Below the pieces are notes generated by a model. The model had not been told where the DNA came from and did not search any database. It was given only the letters and a program-made list of their open reading frames with translations. From contig JALMGJ010000003.1 in NCBI GenBank assembly GCA_023362775.1, forward strand, positions 51,934,416 through 51,998,415: a stretch of 64,000 nucleotides of DNA, read 5' to 3'. Both the position numbers and the translations under genes were made by a program. The DNA is from Charina bottae (Eukaryota; Chordata; Lepidosauria; Squamata; Charinaidae). Shown one piece after another: positions 2,124 to 56,126 of this stretch; positions within the stretch are counted from its first letter, which is position 1, and the number at the start of each line of letters is the position of its first letter.

Positions 2124-2460
2124 ATGAGTAAAGGGCATGGTGGCTCAGCGGGTAAGACACCAGGTTTGTCGATTGGAAGATCACAAGTTCGGAGGTTTGA
2201 ATCCCTAGCCCCACGTGACGGAGTGAGCTCTAGCCCCAGCTCTTGCCAACCTAGCAATTCAAAAGCATGCAAATGCAAGTAGATTCATAGGTACCACTTT
2301 GGTGGGAAGGTAACAGCGTTCCGGGCGCGTCATGCCAGCCACATGACCATGGAAGCGTCTTCGGACAACACTGGTTCTTCGGCTAACAAACGGAGATGAA
2401 CACTGGCCCCTAGAGTCGGACACGACTGCACAAATGTGCGGGGGGAACCTTTACCTTTTT
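2124..2460 (+). repeat. Sauria-type tRNA SINE, full length
   Basis: The head has a tRNA A box (TGGCTCAGCGG) near 2140 and a B-box-like GTTTGAATCC near 2196. The body has the motif block AGCTCTTGCCAACC, then GCATGCAAATGCAAGTAG, then GGTACCAC. The tail carries AGTCGGACACGACT followed by CTTTACC; the same AGTCGGACACGACT string occurs at the 3' ends of BovB copies in this window. A 13-bp duplication, aatgagtattgta, lies at 2111-2123 and 2461-2473. About 8 extra bases separate the left duplication from the usual SINE start. Mobilisation by BovB is known for this family and fits the shared tail. Confidence 0.88.
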
Positions 2461-2689
2461 AATGAGTATTGTAGCTCAATACACTGAAAGGCACAGAACC
2501 AGGAGTGCTTTAATCTATGGAATATTTGATTACTGTTCTAAACAGACTATTTGTGACATACTTGATTCCTAGAAGTGTTATATGTCAATGCTGGAGAAGG
2601 GATATAGCTCAGTGATATATGCTTTGCAATTTGGGGCACCTCCAGGTAAGGCTGGAAAAACTCTGACCTGAAACTCTGGATTGATTAGA

Positions 2690-3570
2690 ATTTCTACATG
2701 AAACCGCTTGGGTTGGTGGGTGTCCACATGTTGATGACATCCTGATCTATTGCTCCCTACCTTCTTTAACTTCACAAAAGCAACCAATGCCCTTGAGTGG
2801 TGCTTAATCTTGATGATGGCCTGGATGAAGGAGAACAGGCTGAAATTTAATCTGGGTAAGATTGAGGCAGTATTGGTAAGGATAAACCAGAACTCCCCAA
2901 GAAAGATGGTTTGGTAAGTGGTCCTTCATCCCCAGCTGTTACCAGATTTGCAAATTTGTTTATTTATTTATATTGACATATGCACCAACTGTGACCCTTC
3001 CTGAGTCAATCATTCTTAACAACTGCTATCCATGCCTTGCATACAACCTGCTTTGACCCTGCAATGAGCTTTACATGGGGCCACTTTTGAAAAATGTCTA
3101 GGATTTGAAATGGCTGCAAAATACTGCTGCCAGGATGTTGACCATAGCAAGATACAGAAATCATAGATGGTTGTACTAAATATCTACATGGGTTACCAAC
3201 TGTCTACCCAGAGCAATTTAAGGAGCTAGTGCTAATTTTTAAAGCCCTAAACAACTTAGGGCCTGATGATATGATGGAACCCTCTCCCACTATAAACATG
3301 CACAGTTACTCAGAGGAGCAGGAGACGCCCTCCTTGACAGAAGTTCTACTATCAAGCAAGAGCTGTTGGTGTGACTCCCAGACCATGGAGCATTCTCCCT
3401 AAGGAAGTGCATCTAGTTCCCAGTCATTAGGAAAACCATGACATTGTCTTTTTCATCAAGCTTTTCATTGTTAATTATTTTAACAATGGTTTTTATTTTG
3501 ATTGTATGAATTTTGTTAGGTTTTATACTGTTTTTTTTTAATTTAATTGTTGTAAAATGCTTTAAACAGA
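2690..3570 (+). pseudogene. L2-group LINE fragment, RT to 3' end, badly decayed
   Basis: Near 2730 the translation gives HVDDILIYC, a decayed form of the RT catalytic YADD block. It is followed by ALEWC...WMKENRLKFN(L)GK, typical of the L2 RT thumb region. Further on, around 3113-3250, come LQNTAARML and a trace of LHWLPVYPRAQF, in shifting frames. The end (3430-3560) is T-rich 3' UTR. Several frameshifts and stops break it. It is a remnant with no coding capacity. Confidence 0.65.
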
Positions 3571-5040: not shown

Positions 5041-5106
5041 GTATGCCACCTGACTCCCAGCAACTCTGGGCAGTTTACAAATTGTTAAAAACATTTTAAA
5101 ACAAAT
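5041..5106 (-). repeat. L2 LINE 3' terminus (part of the split L2 at 5041-6700)
   Basis: On the minus strand this reads TTGTAAACTGCCCAGAGT, then a CTGGGAGTCAGG-type L2 terminus. It was separated from the rest of the L2 (from 5709 onward) by the BovB insertion at 5107-5708. Its last 12 bases on the BovB side (5095-5106, tttaaaacaaat) are repeated on the other side of the BovB. Confidence 0.75.
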
Positions 5107-5708: not shown

Positions 5709-5720
5709 TTTAAAACAAAT

Positions 5721-25980: not shown

Positions 25981-28119
25981 TCAATGTGGTTTGTCCGGGA
26001 ACTCTCTGTGAAAGGTTTTTACTAATTTGGGAGCGCGTGTGTGTTTCGCCATAACCCACTCCCTGTCTCCAATCGGTAGATGTTGCCACTTCACTAGATA
26101 CTGCAACTGCCCCTTGTGCCATCTGGAATCCAGGATCCTATCAATTTCAAAGTATGGTTCTCCCTCAACCAATAATGGGGTGGGTTCCTCTGGTTCTGGA
26201 TGCCATTGCTGTGAACTGTGGTGTTGTTTTAACAAACTAATGTGAAAAACTGGGTGTACCTTTCTTAGTGCCTTTGGCAATAGCAATTTTGCCGTTACTG
26301 GATTGATGACCTCAATGATTGGAAATGGACATATGAATTTTTGAGCCAGTTTCCGTGACGGCTATGTTGCCCTCAGATTTTTTGTTGACAGATACACCTT
26401 GTCCCCTACTTTCAACTCCCATTCTTCTGCCCGTTTTCGATCTGCGTGCTTTTTGTATCTTGCCTTGGCTTCCCGCAATGTTTCTACCATGACTGGCCAA
26501 TTACTGGTTATCTTCGCTATCCAGGCATCCGCTTTCAAAGGTTGCTCTAGTTCTGTGGTGTTGGACATGGCCAGTTCGGGGATGGGGACAAATTCCTGCC
26601 CTGTAGCTACTTTGAATGGCGAAAACCCCGTGCTTTGGTGAAGCGCGTTATTGTAAGCAACCTTTGCGAACGGCAACAGTTCAGCCCAATCATTCTGTTG
26701 GTAATTAATGTAGCATCTAAGGTACTGCTGCAATGTGGCATTAATGCGTTCACTTGCTTCGTCTGTGCACGGATGGAATGCACTACTGAGCCCCTGTTCC
26801 GATGCAATTAGCTTTAAAAACGCCCGCCAGAACTTGCAAGTGAAAGTGCTGCCGCGATCACTGATTATGCGTTCCGGCGTTCCATGAGCTCTATAAATGT
26901 GCTGAATGAACATCCTAGCTAGTTTTGGAGCATTTGGTATTCCCTTGCAAGCAATGAAATGTGCCTGTTTAGAAAATAAGTCTGTGACCACCCAAATGGC
27001 TGTGTTCTTTCTGCTCATCGGTAAGTCAACTATAAAATCCATAGCAATTTGCTTCCATGGCTGTGTGGGGTTTGCAACCTCTTGTAATTTCCCTGTGGGT
27101 TTTCCCATTTTCCGTTTGGCGGTTGCACACACTGGGCATGAGCGCACATAGGCTTTAACGACTGTGCGCAGTGATGGCCACCAAAATTTGCGCCGGATTA
27201 AATGTAGAGTTTTCACAAATCCGAAGTGCTCTGCCGTTTTGTGATCGTGATGTAGGTTCAAGACCTTTTGCCTTAAAGGCTCAGGGACATAGGCTTTGTT
27301 GTCTTTCCACCCCACTCCATCTTTCTCCACTAGGGTGTGTTTGTGTTCCCCCCACCATGCGTCTGTCACTGTTGCCGCCCGCAGTTCGTCTGTCAATTGG
27401 TCGCTCTCTGCCGCACGCTTCGCGCTGCTGCGGGTGATCGCCATGTTGCCCTCCCCCCTCTCTTCCTTTGCCGCTTGGCTCTGAGCCGCCGCTGGCAGCG
27501 AAGGGATGAGTGGCTCTATAACTTCCTCCATCCTGCTTTCATGTTGCGGCAGTCGTGACAACGCGTCTGCCAGGTAGTTTTTTCCCCCAGGGAAGTACTT
27601 CAGTGTGAAATTAAATCTACTGAGGAACTCTGCCCACCGTAGGTGTTTTGGATTTAGTTTTCTGGGGGACTTGAGAGCTTCCAAGTTTTTGCGGTCAGTC
27701 CACACTTGGAACGTTTCTGCTGCCCCTTCCAAGAGGTGTCGCCATGTGCTCAGGGCATGTTTAACAGCAAACGCCTCTTTCTCCCAAATATGCCATCGTC
27801 TCTCCGTTGGATTAAATTTCCGGGAAATGTAAGCACATGGTTTTACTTTCCCACTGTCATCTGCCTGCAGTAGTATGGCTCCAACTGCGCTAAAAGATGC
27901 GTCCGTATGTATGATGAATGGTTTGTCTACCTCTGGGTGTTTGAGGATGGGCTCATTGGTGAATTTTACTTTTAACTTGTCAAAGGCTTCCTGACATTCT
28001 TGGGTCCACACGAGTTTCATGCTCGGTGGCGGGGCTTTTGCTTTCGCCCCCTTGCCTTTTGTTTTTAGTAAGTCAGTCAGGGGCTTCTTGTCCATTTGGC
28101 CAGAATGGAAAATTTGCAA
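25981..28119 (-). pseudogene. Ty3/gypsy chromovirus pol, RNase H to chromodomain
   Basis: One minus-strand frame with a single internal TAG at 26362-26364. From the N-terminal side it encodes the RT/RNase H junction (PLTDLLKTKG), RNase H (HTDASFSAVGAIL, KHALSTWRHLLEGA), the H2C2 zinc finger (HHDHKTAEHFGF...CPVCATAK), the integrase core (AMDFIVDLP, IISDRGSTFT, SERINATLQQYL), then after the TAG a C-terminal part with KVHPVFHISLLK and a chromodomain (EIDRILDSRW, YLVKWQHLP). This order defines a chromovirus-type Metaviridae element. The RT palm, protease and gag are absent: upstream of 28119 the frame meets a stop and TE homology fades. Apart from the one stop the frame is open, suggesting a fairly young but 5'-deleted copy. 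Confidence 0.93.
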
Positions 28120-33424: not shown

Positions 33425-33435
33425 AAGAACATCTA

Positions 33436-33891
33436 AGAACCCTGACTGCTCATTGGAAGGACAGATACTGAAGCTGAAGCTCAAATACTTTGGCCACCTA
33501 ATGCGAAGAGAGGAGTCACTGGAAAAGACCCTGATGCTGGGAAAGACTGAAGGCAAAAGGAGAAGGGGACGGCAGAGGATGAGATGGTTAGATAGTATCA
33601 CCGATGTAATGAACATGAATTTGAGTAAACTCCGGGAGACAGTGGAGGACAGGAAGGCCTGGCGTGCTATGGTCCATGGGCTCACGAAGAGTCGGACACG
33701 ACTTAACAACTGAACAACAACAACAAACCAACCTGTACTGTAAGCAACCACTCAATGTTGGTTTTTTGCTCAGAGAAATCTGTTTCAGACTTACAGTTGC
33801 ATCTCTGTCTGTCTGTCTATTTTATATGGCTGCCTACTTGCAAAGCAACTTGACTAAACAACACGACTAAACGACTGAACAACAAAAACAA
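33436..33891 (+). mobile_element. BovB 3' fragment plus about 124 bp of extra 3' sequence, one insertion
   Basis: Part 1 (33438-33727) is the subfamily B BovB C-terminus (EGQILKLKLKYFGHLMRREE, GRQRMRWLDSITDVMNMNL) ending in CGACTTAACAACTGAACAAC. Part 2 (33728-33851) is not BovB and matches 54467-54590 in inverse orientation with about three differences. Part 3 (33852-33891) is a second BovB-like end, ACACGACTAAACGACTGAAC followed by AACAAAAAC. An 11-bp duplication, aagaacatcta, sits at 33425-33435 and 33892-33902, outside all three parts. That makes the whole a single retrotransposition product. Confidence 0.88.
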
Positions 33892-33902
33892 AAGAACATC
33901 TA

Positions 33903-39581: not shown

Positions 39582-42500
39582 CCAGCAAAGGAGATCGTTA
39601 CCTTGTCATGGTGCTGGAGCTTGAGCACCTCAATGAAATCATGAGCTAAACCGTGAAGGGACACCCAAGACGGGAAAGTCGTGGCAGAGAGGTCAGACTA
39701 AATACGATCCCTGGGGAAGGTAATGGCAACCCACCCCAGTATTCTTGCCATGAAAACTAAATGGATCAGTACAACCAGAGATATGTCGGTATACCATTGG
39801 AAGATGGGACTCCCAGGTCGGAAGATGGTCAAAATGCTACTGGGGAGGAACAGAGGATAAGTTCAACTAGCCCCAGATGTGATGACGCAGCTAGCTCAAA
39901 GCCGAAAGGACGGCTAGCGGCCGACGGTGCTGGTGGTGAATGACGAATCCGATGTTCTAAAGATCAACACACCATAGGAACCTGGAATGTAAGATCTATG
40001 AGCCAGGGCAAATTGGATGTGGTTATTGGTGAGATGTCAAGATTAAATATAGACATTTTAGGTGTCAGTGAACTGAAATGGACTGGAATGGGCCACTTCA
40101 CATCAGATGACCACCAGATCTACTACTGTGGACAAGAGGACCACAGAAGAAATGGAGTAGCCTTCATAATTAATAATAAAGTGGCTAAAGCAGTGCTTGG
40201 ATATAATTCAAAAAACGATAGAATGATCTCAATTCGAATTCAGGGTAAGCCATTTAACATCACAGTGATCCAAATATATGCCCCAACCACAGATGCTGAA
40301 GAAGCAGAAGTAGATCAGTTCTATGAGGATCTGCAGCACCTAGTGGATAATACACCAAAAAGAGATGTTATTTTCATTACAGGAGACTGGAATGCTAAGG
40401 TGGGTAGTCAAACGACACCTGGAATTACAGGCAAGCATGGTCTGGGAGAACAAAATGAAGCAGGACATAGGCTGATAGAATTTTGCCAAGACAACTCACT
40501 GTGCATAACAAACACTCTCTTCCAACAACCTAAAAGACGACTTTATACATGGACTTCACCAGATGGTCGACACCAAAATCAGATTGACTACATCCTTTGC
40601 AGCCAAAGGTGGCAGACATCTATACAGTCAGTAAAAACAAGACCTGGAGCTGACTGTAGTTCAGATCACGAACTTCTTATTGCAAAATTTAGAATCAGAC
40701 TAAAGAGAATAGGGAAGACCCACAGATCAGTTAGATATGAGCTCACTAATATTCCTAAGGAATATGCAGTGGAGGTGAAGAATAGATTTAAGGGACTAGA
40801 TTTAGTAGATAGGGTCCCAGAAGAACTATGGACAGAAGTTCGCAACATTGTTCAGGAGGCGGCAACAAAAAACGTCCCAAAGAAAAAGAAAACCAAGAAG
40901 GCAAGATGGCTGTCTGCTGAAACACTGGAAGTAGCCCAAGAAAGAAGGAAAGCAAAAGGCAATAGTGATAGGGGGAGATATGCCCAATTAAATGCAAAAT
41001 TCCAGAGGTTAGCCAGAAGACATAAGGAATTATTTTTAAACAAGCAATGTGCGGAAGTGGAAGAAGACAATAGAATAGGAAGGACAAGAGACCTCTTCCA
41101 GAAAATTAGAAACATCGGAGGTAAATTCCAGGCAAAAATGGGTATGATCAAAAACAAAGATGGTAAGGACCTAACAGAAGCAGAAGAGATCAAGAAAAGG
41201 TGGCAAGAATATACGGAAGATCTGTATAGGAAGGATAATAATATCAGGGATAGCTTTGACGGTGTGGTCAGTGAGTTAGAGCCAGACATCCTGAAGAGGG
41301 AGGTTGAATGGGCCTTAAGAAGCATTGCTAATAACAAGGCAGCAGGAGACGATGGTATCCCAGCTGAACTGTTTAAAATCTTGCAAGATGATGCTGTCAA
41401 GGTGATGCATGCCATATGCCAGCAAATTTGGAAAACACAAGAATGGCCATCAGATTGGAAGAAATCAACTTATATCCCCATACCAAAAAAGGGAAGCACT
41501 AAAGAATGTTCAAACTATCGAACAGTGGCACTTATTTCACATGCCAGTAAGGTAATGCTCAAGATCTTGCAAGGTAGACTCCAGCAATTCATGGAGCAAG
41601 AATTGCCAGATGTACAAGCTGGGTTTAGAAAAGGCAGAGGAACTAGAGACCAAATTGCCAATATCCACTTGATAATGGAGAAAGCCAGGGAATTTCAGAA
41701 AAACATCTATTTCTGTTGTATTGACTATTCTAAAGCCTTTGACTGTGTGGATCATAACAAATTGTGGCAAGTTCTTGGTGGTATGGGGATACCAAGTCAT
41801 CTTGTCTGCCTCCTGAGGAATCTGTATAATGACCAAGTAGCAACGGTAAGAACTGAGCACGGAACAACGGACTGGTTTAAGATTGGGAAAGGAGTACGGC
41901 AGGGTTGTATACTCTCACCCTACCTATTCAACCTGTACGCAGAACACATCATGCGACGTGCTGGGCTTGAGGAATCCAAGGCTGGAGTTAAAATTGCTGG
42001 AAGAAACATTAACAATCTCAGATATGCAGATGATACCACTTTGATGGCTGAAAGCGAGGAGGAGTTGAGGAGCCTTATGACGAAGGTGAAAGAAGAAAGT
42101 GCTAAAGCTGGGTTGCAGTTAAACCTCAAAAAAACCAAGATTATGGCAACGAGCTTGATTGATGACTGGCAAATAGAGGGAGAAAAAGTGGAGGCAGTGA
42201 CAGACTTTGTATTTCTAGGCGCAAAGATTACTGCGGACGCTGACTGCAGCCAGGAAATCAGAAGACGTCTACTTCTTGGGAGGAGAGCAATGGCAAATCT
42301 TGATAAAATAGTTAAGAGCAGAGACATCACACTGACAACAAAGGTCCGCATAGTTAAAGCAATGGTATTCCCTGTAGTAACCTATGGCTGCGAGAGCTGA
42401 ACCATAAGGAAGGCTGAGCGAAGGAAGATAGATGCTTTTGAACTGTGGTGTTGGAGGAAAATTCTGAGAGTGCCTCGGACTGCATGAAGATCAAACCAGT

Positions 42501-42800
42501 CCATACTCCAGGAAATAAAGCCAGACTTCTCACTTGAGGGAATGATATTAAAGGCAAAACTGAAGTACTTTGGCCACATAATGAGAAGACAGGATACCCT
42601 GGAGAAGAAGCTGATGCTAGGGAAAGTGGAAGGCAAAAGGAAGAGGGGCCGACCAAGGGCAAGATGGATGGATGGTATTCTGGAGGTGATGGACTCAACC
42701 ATGGGGGAGCTGGGGATGGTGACGGCCGACAGGAATCTCTGGCGTGGGCTGGTCCATGAAGTCACAAAGAGTCGGAAACGACTGAACTAATAAACAACAC
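39582..42800 (+). mobile_element. Full-length BovB (RTE) LINE, subfamily A
   Basis: A 3.2-kb insertion. The 5' region (39582-39950) has GGAGATCGTTACCTTGTCAT and CCCAGTATTCTTGCCATGAA, which have counterparts at the 5' end of the 45-kb copy, so both look full length. The coding frame follows, then the 3' end AGTCGGAAACGACTGAAC with AATAAACAACAC. It is flanked by 281-bp direct repeats instead of the short TSDs seen at other BovB copies here. Confidence 0.93.
39944..42790 (+). pseudogene. BovB ORF2: AP endonuclease and reverse transcriptase, two stops
   Basis: The frame opens after a TGA at 39941 and encodes IGTWNVRSM, the first endonuclease strand, before the ATG at 39998, so that ATG is internal. 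Numbered from 39998: catalytic SELKW (E25), QIYAPTTDA, GDWNAKVG (about 129), SDHELL (about 222). The RT has YRTVALISHASKVMLKIL, IDYSKAFDCVDH, GVRQGCILSPYLF (about 632) and YADDTTLMAES (about 676). The frame is open to a TGA at 42398-42400 inside CES(W)T; a second TGA lies at 42485-42487. Beyond these the same frame gives KYFGHIMRRQDTLEKKLMLG and DSTMGELGM to the natural end near 42790. Both stops fall after the RT catalytic core. Confidence 0.95.
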
Positions 42801-45020: not shown

Positions 45021-45061
45021 ATTATTATTATTATTATTGTTGTTGTTGTTGTTGTTGTTGT
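45021..45061. repeat. (ATT)n-(GTT)n microsatellite at a BovB 3' end
   Basis: About six ATT units followed by about eight GTT units. On the minus strand it reads (AAC)n(AAT)n directly after the BovB 3' end, so it is probably the expanded BovB tail. Confidence 0.9.
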
Positions 45062-48000
45062 TTAGTCATTTAGTCGTGTCCGACTCTTCGTGACCTCATG
45101 GACCATAGCATGCCAGGCCTTCCTGTCCTCCACTGTCACCCGGAGTTTACTGAAATTCATGTTCATTACATTGGTGATGCTATCTAACCATCTCATCCTC
45201 TGCCGTCCCCTTCTCCTTTTGCCCTCAGTCTTTCCCAGCATCAGGGTCTTTTCCAGTGAGTCCTCTCTTCGCATTAGGTGGCCAAAGTATTTGAGCTTCA
45301 GCTTCAGTATCTGTCCTTCCAATGAGCAGTCAGGGTTGATTTCCTTTAGGATTGACTGATTTGACCTCCTTGCAGTCCAAGGGACTCTTAAGAGTCTTCT
45401 CCAGCACCACAGTTTGAAAGCATCAATTCTTCGGCGCTCAGCCTTCCTTATGGTCCAACTCTCACAGCCATACATTACTACTGGGAAAACCATAGCTTTA
45501 ACTATACGGACGTTTGTTGGCAAGGTGATGTCTCTGCTTTTTAATATGCTGTCTAGGTTTGCCATAGCTTTCCTTCCAAGGAGCAAGCGTCTTTTAATTT
45601 CATGGCTGCAGTCACCGTCTGCGGTGATCTTGGAGCCCAAGAAAATAAAATCTGTCACTGCTTCCATTTCTTCCCCTTCTATTTGCCAGGAAGTGATGGG
45701 ACCAGATGCTATGACCTGAGTTTTTTTAATGTTGAGTTTCAAGCCAGCTTTTGCACTCTCCTCTTTCACCCTCATCAAGAGGCTCTTTAGTTCCTCTTCA
45801 CTTTCTGCCATTAGGGTGGTATCGTCTGCATATCTGAGGTTGTTGATATTTCTCCCGGCAATCTTAACTCCGGCTTGTGATTCATCCAGCCCAGCATTTC
45901 TCATGATGTACTCTGCATATAAGTTAAATAAGCAGGGTGATAATATACAGCCTTGTCGTACTCCTTTCCCAATTTTGAACCAGTCGGTTGTTCCATGTCC
46001 GGTTCTAACTGTTGCTTCTTGACCCGCATACAGGTTTCTCAGGAGACAAGTAAGGTGGTCTGGTACTCCCATCTCTTTAAGAATTTGCCACAGTTTGTTG
46101 TGATCCACACAATCAAAGGCTTTAGCATAGTCAATGAAGCAGAAGTAGATGTTTTTCTGGAACTCTCTTGCTTTTTCCATGATCCAGCGAATGTTGGCAA
46201 TCTGATCTCTAGTTCCTCTGCCTCTTCGAAACCCAGCTTGCACTTCTGGTAGTTCTCATTTCACATACTGCTGAAGCCTAGCTTGTAGGATTTTGAGCAT
46301 AACCTTGCTAGCATGTGAAATGAGCGCAATTGTACGGTAGTTTGAACATTCTTTGGCATTGCCTTTCTTTGGAATTGGAACGTAAACTGACCTTTTCCAA
46401 TCCTGTGGCCACTGTTGAGTTTTCCAAATTTGTTGGCATATTGAGTGCAGCACTTTAACAGCATCATCTTTTAGGATTTTAAATAGCTCAGCTGGGATAC
46501 TGTCTTCTCCACTAGCTTTGTTGTTAGTAATGCTTCCTAAGGCCCACTTGACTTCACTCTCTAGGATGTCCGGCTCAAGGTCAGTGACCACACCATCGTA
46601 TTTATCAGGGATATTAAGATCTTTCTTGTATAGTTCTTCTGTGTATTCTTGCCACCTCTTCTTAATCTCTTCTGCTTCTGTTAGGTCCCTGCCTTTTTTG
46701 TCCTTTATCATGCCCATCTTTGCACAAAACGTTCCCTTGATATCTCCAATTTTCTTGAAGAGATCTCTAGTCTTCCCCATTCTATTGTTTTCCTCGATTT
46801 CTTTGCATTGTTCATTTAAGAAGGCCTTCTTATCTCTCCTTGCTATTCTCTGGAATTCTGCATTCAGTTGGTTATATCTTTCCCTTTCTCCCTTGCCTTT
46901 TGCTTCCCTTCTTTCCTCAGCTATTTGTAAAGCCTCATCAGTCAGCCACTTTGCTTTCTTGCATTTCTTTTTCTTTGGGATGGTTTTAGTTGCTGCCTCC
47001 TGTACAATGTTACGAACCTCCATCCATAGTTCTTCAGGCACTCTGTCTACCAGATCTAATCCTTTAAATCTATTCCTCACCTCCACTGTATATTCATAAG
47101 GGATATGATTTAGGTCATACCTGAGTGGTCTAGTGGTTTTCTCTACGTTCTTCAATTTAAGCCTAAATTTTGCGATAAGAAGCTCATGATCTGAGCCACA
47201 GTCAGCTCCAGGTCTTGTTTTTGCTGATTGTATAGAGCTTCTCCATCTTTGGCTGCAAAGTATATAATCAATCTGATTTCGGTATTGACCATCTGGTGAT
47301 GTCCATGTGTAGAGTCGTCTCTTGTGTTGTTGGAAAAGAGTGTTTGCTATGACCAGCGTGTTCTCTTGACAAAACTCTATTAGCCTTTGCCCTGCTTCAT
47401 TTTGTACTCCAAGGCCGAACTTGCCTGTTATTCCGGTTATTTTTTGACTTCCTACTTTAGCATTCCAGTCGCCTATGATGAAAAGGACATCTTTTTTTGG
47501 TGTTAGTTGTAGGTGTTGTAGGTCTTCATAGAACCGGTCAACTTCAGCTTCTTCGGCATCAGTGGTTGGGGCATAGACTTGGATCACTGTGATGTTGAAT
47601 GGTTTGCCTTGGATTCGAACTGAAAGCATTCTGTCGTTTTTGAGGTTGTACCCCAGTACTGCCTTTCCCACTCTTTTATTGACTATGAGAGCTACTCCAT
47701 TTCTTCTAAGGGATTCTTGCCCACAGTAGTATATATAATGGTCTCCTGAATTAAATTCGCCCATTCCTGTCCATTTTAGTTCGCTGATTCCCAATATGTC
47801 GATGTTCAATCTTGTCATCTCATGTTTGACCACATCCAGCTTACCTTGATTCATTGATCTTACATTCCAGGTTCCTATGCAATATTGTTCTTTACAGCAT
47901 CGGACTTTCCTTCCACTTCCAGACACATCCACAACTGAGCGTCCTTTCAGCTTTGGCCCAGCCGCTTCACTCTTTCTGGAGCTACTCAGAATTGCCCTCC

Positions 48001-54339: not shown

Positions 54340-54516
54340 GCTGATCTTGGCTATTCTGCTTCTGTTGATTTCATTATTCTATTATTTGGTTCATTGATTC
54401 TGGAAGTTTTTGTCTTTGTTTTTCCTCCTTTTGTTTTCATGCTTGTATACAGTTGTAAGCCAACCAAAGTTGCTTTGCAAGTAGTCAGCCATATAAAATA
54501 GACAGACAAACAGAGA
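54340..54516 (+). repeat. L2-group LINE 3' end
   Basis: T-rich 3' UTR followed by TTGTAAGCCAACCAAAGTTG, CAAGTAGTCAGCCATATAAA and a GACAGACAAACA tail. This matches the layout of the L2 terminus at 39301 (GCCACCCAGAGTCACTTG...GTGGCCATATAAA). Part of this terminus (from 54467) also occurs in inverse orientation in the insertion at 33.4 kb. Confidence 0.65.
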
Positions 54517-54590
54517 TGCAACTGTAAGTCTGAAACAGATTTCTCTGAGCAAAAAACCAACATTGAGTGGTTGCTTACAGTACAGGTTGC
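54467..54590. repeat. BovB 3' flank shared with 33728-33851
   Basis: 124 bp lying directly 3' of the minus-strand BovB. It matches 33728-33851 in inverse orientation with about three substitutions. It covers the end of the L2 3' terminus and about 75 bp of other sequence. Here it is continuous with a longer L2 3' end on its left, so this locus looks like the original context. Confidence 0.93.
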
Positions 54591-55116
54591 TTTGTTGTTG
54601 TTGTTCAGTTGTTAAGTCGTGTCCGACTCTTCGTGAGCCCATGGACCATAGCATGCCAGGCCTTCCTGTCCTCCACTGTCTCCCGGAGTTTACTCAAAGT
54701 CATGTTTGTTACATCGGTGATACTATCTAACCATCTCATCCTCTGCCGTCCCCTTCTCCTTTTGCCCTCAGTCTTTCCCAGCATCAGGGTCTTTTCCAGT
54801 GAGTCCTCTCTTCGCATTAGGTGGCCAAAGTATTTGAGCTTCAGCTTCAGTATCTGTCCTTCCAATGAGCAGTCAGGGTTGATTTCCTTTAGGATTGACT
54901 GATTTGACCTCCTTGCAGTCCAAGGGACTCTTAAGAGTCTTCTCCAGCACCACAGTTTGAAAGCATCAATTCTTCGGCGCTCAGCCTTCCTTATGGTCCA
55001 ACTCTCACAGCCATACACTACTACTGGGAAAACCATAGCTTTAATTATACGGACCTTTGTTGGCAAGGTGATGTCTCTGCTTTTTACTATGCTGTCTAGG
55101 TTTGCCATAGCTTTCC
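54591..55116 (-). pseudogene. BovB 3' fragment, subfamily B
   Basis: Minus-strand translation gives KAMANLDSIVKSRDITLPTK, VVVYGCESWTIRKAERRRID, EGQILKLKLKYFGHLMRRED and SITDVTNMTLSKLRETVED. The frame is open over 175 codons. It ends in CGACTTAACAACTGAACAAC. The 5' truncation falls at GCTTTCC (55116). It shares with the 33.4-kb copy the variants GATAGTATCACC and CATGGGCTCACG, where the 5-kb and 45-kb copies differ. I could not find a TSD. Confidence 0.93.
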
Positions 55117-55400
55117 GAGACCCCAAATTCATCCTATAAAGTGCTTCTATACACGGTTCTTTTCATATCTTATTTCTACATTGCCATGGCATCTGTATTT
55201 CTGTCATCCAATTCCCATGTCCTCTTCCAGCCACAATAAACCATTTGGGAAAGGACTGAGGATGAATTCATTTTTTTTGCTACTTAATACAAAATTTATA
55301 CTTGAATTAAAATGCAAATGAAACATTGTCATTCTTTGAAATTCATACCTCTCCAATTTATTCTGTGTCATTCTGAATTCCTATTTTAGTGAAAATAACG
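55117..55400. other. No recognised feature
   Basis: AT-rich sequence between BovB and the L1 tail. Confidence 0.35.
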
Positions 55401-56126
55401 TAAAATGCAGTTGTGTAAATTTATTTATTTATTTATTTATTATAATTCCAAGAACAAAGAAGGAAGGAAAAGGAACAAAATTGATACAAATAGACATTTA
55501 AAAGACTATAGAGAATAAAGGAAGGAACAAAATAGAAGCAATAGAAGCAATAGAATATGGGTAGATAGCCAACAAACCATGAATAACCAGCAGTTCAAAA
55601 ATATCACATGACTAATATATTCTAATACACCATTAACAACCTAGAGTACCATAAGACATTTCACACCCAATTTCTAGTCAAGAGATGTCTCAACTGAACT
55701 GTATAAATATTTGGTTAAGACAATTGCATTCAAAGAAGAAAAAGAAAAGCTATAAATAGTAAGCAATATATTAAAATAATACTGTAAAGAATGTGTAGGC
55801 TATATGCCCAATTAAAATGTAAACTCTAGAACCCAGATATGGAGTGAGGCACAGTTTCATGTATAGAATTGTAGTCCAGAAATGGTTTCCAAAAAGATTA
55901 AACTGTACATCAGATTTACTTTTTCAATATGAAGTTTTTCTAGACATCGAAGCAAATTCCCAGAGTTTAATTCACCATTCTGCCATAGACAGGATCAGAA
56001 ATCTTTTCCAATAAAAAGTATATAAAATCCGTTCAGCTGTTATCATATATAATGGCAGTTTCGTATATTTTGAAGGAAAGTGTAGATTGGTGAAGCTTAG
56101 TAAAATATCTAAGGTTGAAATGGAAT
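55401..56126 (-). pseudogene. L1 LINE ORF2 end and 3' UTR (split by a MITE)
   Basis: It is the minus-strand continuation of the L1 at 56488-56880. Traces of the L1 C-terminal end such as VQFNLFWKPFLDY-like sequence occur near 55890 in shifting frames. The element ends in an AAATAAATAAAT tail (TTTATTTATT at 55419-55441). It is heavily decayed. Confidence 0.55.

What the first reader, a model, noticed from the sequence alone, without database searches (positions are those of the whole stretch)
33436..33891. BovB insertion that carries DNA from another locus in the same window (54.5 kb)
The insertion at 33.4 kb holds a BovB 3' piece, then 124 bp matching the sequence 3' of the BovB at 54.5 kb, then a second BovB-like end. 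An 11-bp TSD encloses all of it. At 54.5 kb the shared 124 bp runs into a longer L2 3' end, while at 33.4 kb it stops abruptly, so 54.5 kb looks like the parental context. The two BovB pieces also share variants (GATAGTATCACC, CATGGGCTCACG) absent from the 5-kb and 45-kb copies. The simplest reading is 3' transduction by read-through, with the terminal BovB-like tail added by template jumping.
Basis: partly seen in the sequence, partly recalled or inferred. Interest (0 to 1): 0.8.

Follow-up and report, generated by a model that had tools for sequence, protein, structure and literature searches.

The report
BovB copy patched by neighbouring copy
A jumping-gene fragment in what looks like a lizard or snake genome carries a 125-base piece of DNA that belongs next to another copy of the same jumping gene about 21,000 bases away, most likely because a break in the first copy was repaired by copying the neighbour and a little too much was copied.

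Summary
Between 11-bp direct repeats, 33.4 kb carries a BovB 3' piece, 125 nt that also follow the 54.5-kb BovB, and a second BovB tail. A search of the 1.80-Gb genome found the 125 nt at high identity only at these two loci. 54.5 kb is the native context: an old L2-like repeat runs through the point where 33.4 stops in 8 of 8 other loci found.

The BovB part is a mosaic. From 33679 to the end of the flank it tracks 54.5, including C33681, seen in 0 of 57 other copies. Up to 33664 it does not: all six differences are alleles seen in other copies. The terminal tail is of another subtype than the tail beside the flank. The loci lie 20.6 kb apart, and the donor BovB is 5'-truncated today.

Best reading (0.55): an ordinary BovB insertion, later broken in its 3' end and repaired by copying the inverted neighbouring BovB past its end into the flank, then end-joined to the old tail. 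RNA template switching remains possible. The unbiased haplotype test could not be completed.

The parts
33425..33435 (+). left copy of the 11-bp target-site duplication AAGAACATCTA; preceded by T, begins with A
33436..33437 (+). two bases AG not assigned to BovB
33438..33664 (+). upstream part of the BovB piece; does not track the 54.5 copy (six differences, all at alleles seen in other copies)
33665..33678 (+). stretch identical between 33.4 and 54.5 in which the change from non-54.5 to 54.5 type must lie if there was one change
   Evidence: inference
33679..33726 (+). BovB 3' end of the 54.5 type, with C33681 shared only with 54.5 (0 of 57 others)
33727..33851 (+). captured flank, 125 nt, 3 differences from 54591-54467
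33852..33860 (+). nine bases GACTAAACA; eight of them repeat GACTAAAC of the neighbouring tail (filler, inferred)
33861..33891 (+). terminal BovB tail of another subtype than 33696-33726; read as the tail of the original insertion
33892..33902 (+). right copy of the target-site duplication
54467..54591 (-). donor flank in its native context
54592..55116 (-). donor BovB, 5'-truncated, inverted relative to 33.4

Best explanation
33.4 kb began as an ordinary 5'-truncated BovB insertion made by target-primed reverse transcription, with an 11-bp duplication and its own tail (33861-33891). Later a break near its 3' end was repaired from the inverted BovB 20.6 kb away at 54.5 kb: the upstream end invaded within BovB homology (33665-33678), DNA synthesis ran through the donor's BovB 3' end and 125 nt into its flank, and the new strand left the donor and was end-joined to the remaining old tail with a 9-nt filler that largely repeats its neighbour. 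This is gene conversion with homology on one side only. Shown: the anatomy, the native context, the mosaic, the different tail subtype, and that the segment was found at two loci only. Inferred: the break, the order of events, and DNA rather than RNA as template.
For: Mosaic: four sites that contradict the 33.4+54.5 pair all lie at or before 33664 and four that support it at or after 33679, using the two other close copies of the window, which were not picked by similarity; 0, 2 and 11 of 4000 simulated plain copies had as many conflicts and 0 of 4000 in each model had the left/right pattern. The six differences are alleles of other copies. The last tail has A and G at the sites matching 33704 and 33708 where the tail beside the flank has T and A; L027, one of three copies nearest to the upstream part, has a tail with one mismatch to it. 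The composite tail occurs once in the genome at up to two mismatches. The flank is native at 54.5. Donor and recipient are 20.6 kb apart and inverted. The donor is truncated, so a DNA template needs no transcript.
Against: T33596 is shared by 33.4 and 54.5 and rare (2 of 57) but lies left of the proposed change point. 33664 is in a CpG context and 33610/33611 may be one event, so the independent conflicts may be as few as two; neither was simulated. 33.4 is the closest scored copy to 54.5 over the whole 289 nt and the tree pairs them at 0.741. The copies used for allele counts were picked by similarity to 33.4 or 54.5. No relative without the captured segment was available.
Confidence: 0.55

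Rival explanations
1. RNA-level chimera with three template stretches: BovB reverse transcriptase was primed on the tail of one BovB RNA, jumped to a transcript that crosses the 54.5 BovB and its flank, then switched by homology back to a BovB RNA for the 5' part, all in one insertion.
For: One duplication encloses all parts and all are in one orientation. RTE-element/U6 chimeras by template switching are reported in Anolis (PMC4476161, passages). RTE is listed among clades with stringent 3'-tail recognition (PMC4176376, passages), which would explain why a BovB tail stands last. L054 in this genome is a duplication-bounded BovB insertion with an extra BovB piece at its 5' end.
Against: Needs two switches and a transcript across a truncated donor; does not explain a donor 20.6 kb away. 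0 of 38 close copies had a second tail within 900 nt downstream.
Confidence: 0.22
2. One reading: a single read-through RNA of the 54.5 BovB and its flank (3' transduction), with the last BovB tail added by a template jump.
For: Contiguous match of 414 nt across the BovB end, native flank at 54.5, C33681 private to the pair, 33.4 the closest scored copy to 54.5.
Against: The mosaic left of 33665; truncated source; nearness. It survives if 54.5 was itself partly converted by another BovB after the copying.
Confidence: 0.15
3. Two separate insertions at one place, or an assembly join.
For: Two BovB tails are present.
Against: No inner duplication: the longest word shared across the inner junctions in the two nested cases is 4 and 5 nt. 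An assembly join would not give an 11-bp duplication or 3 differences in 125 nt.
Confidence: 0.04

Closest known systems
Gene conversion between retrotransposon copies, and double-strand-break repair by strand invasion ending in end-joining (general knowledge; no paper consulted)
   Same: homologous nearby donor, one-way transfer, mosaic recipient, filler at the joint
   Different: here the tract leaves the homology and brings 125 nt of the donor's flank; the break and the repair were not observed
LINE 3' transduction (known from L1 and SVA, recalled; compare PMC13174262 on L1 chimeras, passages)
   Same: element 3' end followed by its source flank, enclosed by a duplication
   Different: the element part is not from the same copy throughout, a second element tail follows the flank, and the source is truncated
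LINE template-switch chimeras, including U6 with RTE elements in Anolis (PMC4476161, passages)
   Same: pieces from different templates in one orientation inside one duplication
   Different: the foreign piece is a genomic flank continuous with an element copy, not a small RNA
Squamate Bov-B insertion (PMC13295347, parts 1-3 of 7)
   Same: duplication begins with A after T; tail rich in CAA; 5' truncation
   Different: no TTT about ten bases upstream of the duplication at 33.4 kb

Membership tests
Bov-B (RTE-clade) insertion | sequence homology to Bov-B with endonuclease and reverse transcriptase in longer copies | tested here: met
   domains in the 45-48 kb copy; up to 87% protein identity over the whole query to Podarcis muralis; 33.4 and that copy 276 of 289 identical
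Bov-B (RTE-clade) insertion | target-site duplication | tested here: met
   11 of 11 identical
Bov-B (RTE-clade) insertion | duplication starts with A, preceded by T | tested here: met
   T|AAGAACATCTA
Bov-B (RTE-clade) insertion | three T about ten bases upstream of the duplication | tested here: not met
   none in the 25 bases upstream at 33.4 kb; present at the 5-kb copy. In the paper the pattern was found in 108 of 123 duplications of one species, so it is a tendency
LINE 3' transduction | flank matches the 3' flank of another copy in its native context | tested here: met
LINE 3' transduction | element part and flank come from the same source copy | tested here: not met
   mosaic up to 33664; 33679 onwards met
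LINE 3' transduction | source able to be transcribed from its own promoter | tested here: inconclusive
   54.5 BovB is about 525 nt today; an earlier longer state is not excluded
Gene conversion with one-sided homology | change point inside homology | tested here: met
   33665-33678 identical; conflicts left, support right
Gene conversion with one-sided homology | remaining recipient parts belong to one original element | tested here: inconclusive
   A at 33704 in 7 of 8 carriers of G33515 against 3 of 29 others among copies near 33.4 (counted by hand); picking by similarity can cause this
Gene conversion with one-sided homology | relatives with the unconverted insertion | not testable with these tools
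   no relatives of this genome held
Template-switch chimera | joined templates in one orientation inside one duplication | tested here: met
   this does not separate it from conversion

The most novel reading that the evidence does not exclude
A stringent-type LINE enzyme moved host flank by switching, within one insertion, from a BovB RNA to a transcript still held at a locus 20.6 kb away and back to a BovB RNA: a local, RNA-templated way of copying neighbouring sequence, protected by the element's own tail.
Probability: 0.15. Interest if true: 0.65.

Novelty: new member of a known kind. Interest (0 to 1): 0.38.

Why it matters
Segments shared between the 3' flanks of two LINE copies are commonly read as 3' transductions and used to trace source elements. 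If a neighbour's flank can be captured by repair copying, some such calls, above all between near copies, are false. A flank-tagged mosaic pair makes the two routes separable, because only repair predicts relatives that have the insertion without the captured segment.

Tried and rejected
Third source: an 11-of-12 repeat around 54.5 kb would have made 54.5 a transduced copy as well (scores of 9 or more in 11 of 200 random pairs); dropped because the old repeat runs through it. Splicing as the cause of the flank end: no GT follows GCAACTT at 54.5 kb. Nested insertions: no inner duplication (the repeat search had a minimum of 12 nt and could not settle this). RNA families: 0 matches in the window at gathering scores. 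A 27-mer of the flank in viral contigs: 0. Absence of a duplication at 54.5 kb is no evidence: exact ones of 9 or more were found for 10 of 31 close copies whose 5' end lay in the stretch, one of the ten implausible. The 54.5 5' flank gave no empty site: 55117-55409 has no other match in the genome, the rest is an old repeat (40 of 168 candidates scored). An unpicked sample from loci already held gave only 54.5 itself (98 loci). The naive probability of 1.3e-8 for the six alleles is not used, because the sample is biased. Folds of BovB 3' ends differ between tail types; not pursued.

Full report
What is there. At 33.4 kb an 11-bp direct repeat, AAGAACATCTA, stands at 33425-33435 and 33892-33902 and nowhere else in the window on either strand. 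Between the copies lie, in order: two bases AG; a BovB piece (33438-33726); 125 nt that also follow the BovB at 54.5 kb (33727-33851 against 54591-54467 on the minus strand, 3 differences); nine bases GACTAAACA; and a second BovB tail (33861-33891). The copies at 5 kb and 45 kb match only to the end of BovB. The repeat is not chance: 58 of 200,000 random pairs of 17-nt stretches share an 11-mer. Inner junctions show no duplication longer than 5 nt in the two nested cases.

Setting. The window lies in a genome of 1.80 Gb in 278 contigs. That it is a squamate is an inference from BovB proteins up to 87% identical to those of Podarcis muralis over the whole query and from repeats that I recognise from memory as Sauria SINEs. 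The 45-48 kb BovB has endonuclease and reverse-transcriptase domains.

Which locus is native. A genome search with the 54.5 flank had 10 candidates, all scored: 54.5 itself, 33.4, and copies of an old repeat. The latter are 8 loci (9 match rows, two of them one locus), 66-76% identical, and all 8 cross the point where 33.4 stops. So the sequence at 54.5 kb is old and continuous, and 33.4 holds a cut-out of it. This also removes a possible duplication around 54.5 kb that would have made it a transduced copy too. The tool warns that it skips very common words and that counts are lower bounds. A separate search with the 125 nt alone did not complete. No transducing family was seen.

Is the BovB part also from 54.5? 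Queried with the 33.4 insert, the genome gave 38 other BovB copies at 96-98% (40 of 1915 candidates scored). Queried with 289 nt of the 54.5 BovB, the best other copy is 33.4 itself (495 bits, next 490; 40 of 2259 scored). I compared the 38 copies and 28 of the 38 others (10 were not cut out), together 57 distinct rows after identical ones were dropped. C33681 is in 33.4 and 54.5 and in 0 of 57; T33596 in 2 of 57; A33708 in 12 of 57. A tree puts 33.4 and 54.5 together with support 0.741 among 61 tips.

The mosaic. The six BovB differences between 33.4 and 54.5 all lie at or before 33664, and each is an allele seen in other copies: the 54.5 states at 33551, 33610, 33611, 33619 and 33664 in 2, 25, 16, 3 and 8 of 57, the 33.4 state G33515 in 8 of 57. 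In 33438-33664, 45 of 59 compared copies are closer to 33.4 than 54.5 is; in 33665-33726 none of the 59 is as close. These copies, except the window's own two, were picked by similarity, so frequencies are biased. The conflict does not rest on them alone: with the 5-kb and 45-kb copies of the window, four sites (33551, 33610, 33611, 33664) contradict the pair and all lie left of 33665, while 33679, 33681, 33704 and 33708 support it, and one site on the left, 33596, supports it too. Simulated plain copies had four or more conflicts in 0, 2 and 11 of 4000 runs with even, moderately uneven and very uneven rates, and never the left/right pattern. Branch lengths were set by hand near the observed distances; CpG hot spots were not modelled, and 33664 is one, while 33610/33611 may be a single event.

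The last tail. At the sites that correspond to 33704, 33707 and 33708 it has A, C and G; the tail beside the flank has T, C and A. It is therefore not a plain repeat of the neighbouring tail. L027, one of the three copies nearest to the upstream part of 33.4, shares T33596 and has a tail with one mismatch to it. Among 37 distinct copies near 33.4, A at 33704 is in 7 of 8 carriers of G33515 and 3 of 29 others (counted by hand), as if the upstream part and the last tail were one original element; picking by similarity could produce the same correlation, so it is a lead only. The composite junction is found once in the genome at up to two mismatches.

How it most likely arose. The pieces fit an ordinary BovB insertion that was broken in its 3' end and repaired from the inverted neighbour 20.6 kb away, with synthesis running past the end of homology and end-joining to the old tail. 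This accounts at once for the mosaic, the odd last tail, the filler, the nearness and a donor with no evident promoter. T33596, shared left of the change point, speaks against a single change point or needs chance. RNA template switching explains the single duplication, and the mosaic if the enzyme switched twice. It has precedent in RTE elements of Anolis (PMC4476161, passages), and stringent 3'-end recognition (PMC4176376, passages) would explain why a BovB tail stands last. One duplication-bounded insertion here, L054, carries an extra BovB piece at its 5' end, so such joins do occur; but 0 of 38 close copies had a second tail within 900 nt. Plain 3' transduction is the least likely of these three.

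Limits. Genome searches were answered six times. No relatives of this genome are held. Paper searches listed no paper whose title or shown abstract describes 3' transduction or flank capture by BovB; only the top rows of each were seen, and most subscription papers are not held. Papers seen: PMC13295347 parts 1-3 of 7; PMC13174262, PMC4476161, PMC4176376 and PMC3747384 as passages; PMC2887409 gave no passage for the terms asked.

Verdict. A real, clean and unusual structure, of a kind that known processes can make. It is interesting as a test case for telling repair copying from transduction, not as a new system.

Noticed in passing
L054 (G000:C46:24846100-24848600), about 805-880 in BovB orientation: A BovB insertion with duplication CAATATCTAA that encloses a 33-nt BovB piece from elsewhere in the element at its 5' end, a second join of BovB pieces in one insertion.
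   Followed up: partly
L047 (G000:C1:192309300-192311800): BovB with its middle missing: reference 54-505 joined directly to 2366-3252, with no GT-AG at the ends, so not splicing.
   Followed up: partly
L056 (G000:C1:147371900-147374400), after 1539 in BovB orientation: 121 nt of internal BovB sequence begin 19 nt after a BovB 3' end, same orientation.
   Followed up: no
window 39998-42799, + strand: A more distant relative of BovB (74% at the 3' part) with an 800-aa open frame holding endonuclease and reverse-transcriptase domains.
   Followed up: no
window 45049-47932, - strand: Long BovB copy whose coding region is split into two frames of 558 and 393 aa near 46243-46256.
   Followed up: no
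window 5095-5106 and 5709-5720: The 5-kb BovB copy has the duplication ATTTGTTTTAAA with the T-run and TA signature described for squamate Bov-B (PMC13295347).
   Followed up: partly
window 55410-55700: Old repeat; several of its best genome matches have equal scores and cluster on contig C110 at 173-179 Mb, which suggests a local amplification there.
   Followed up: no
window 26362-28119, - strand: Open frame with RNase H and integrase domains of an LTR retrotransposon.
   Followed up: no
protein hits P0014, P0017, P0032: BovB proteins filed under Mycoplasmopsis arginini, Babesia ovata and Mycolicibacterium malmesburyense, most likely host contamination of those records (inference).
   Followed up: no
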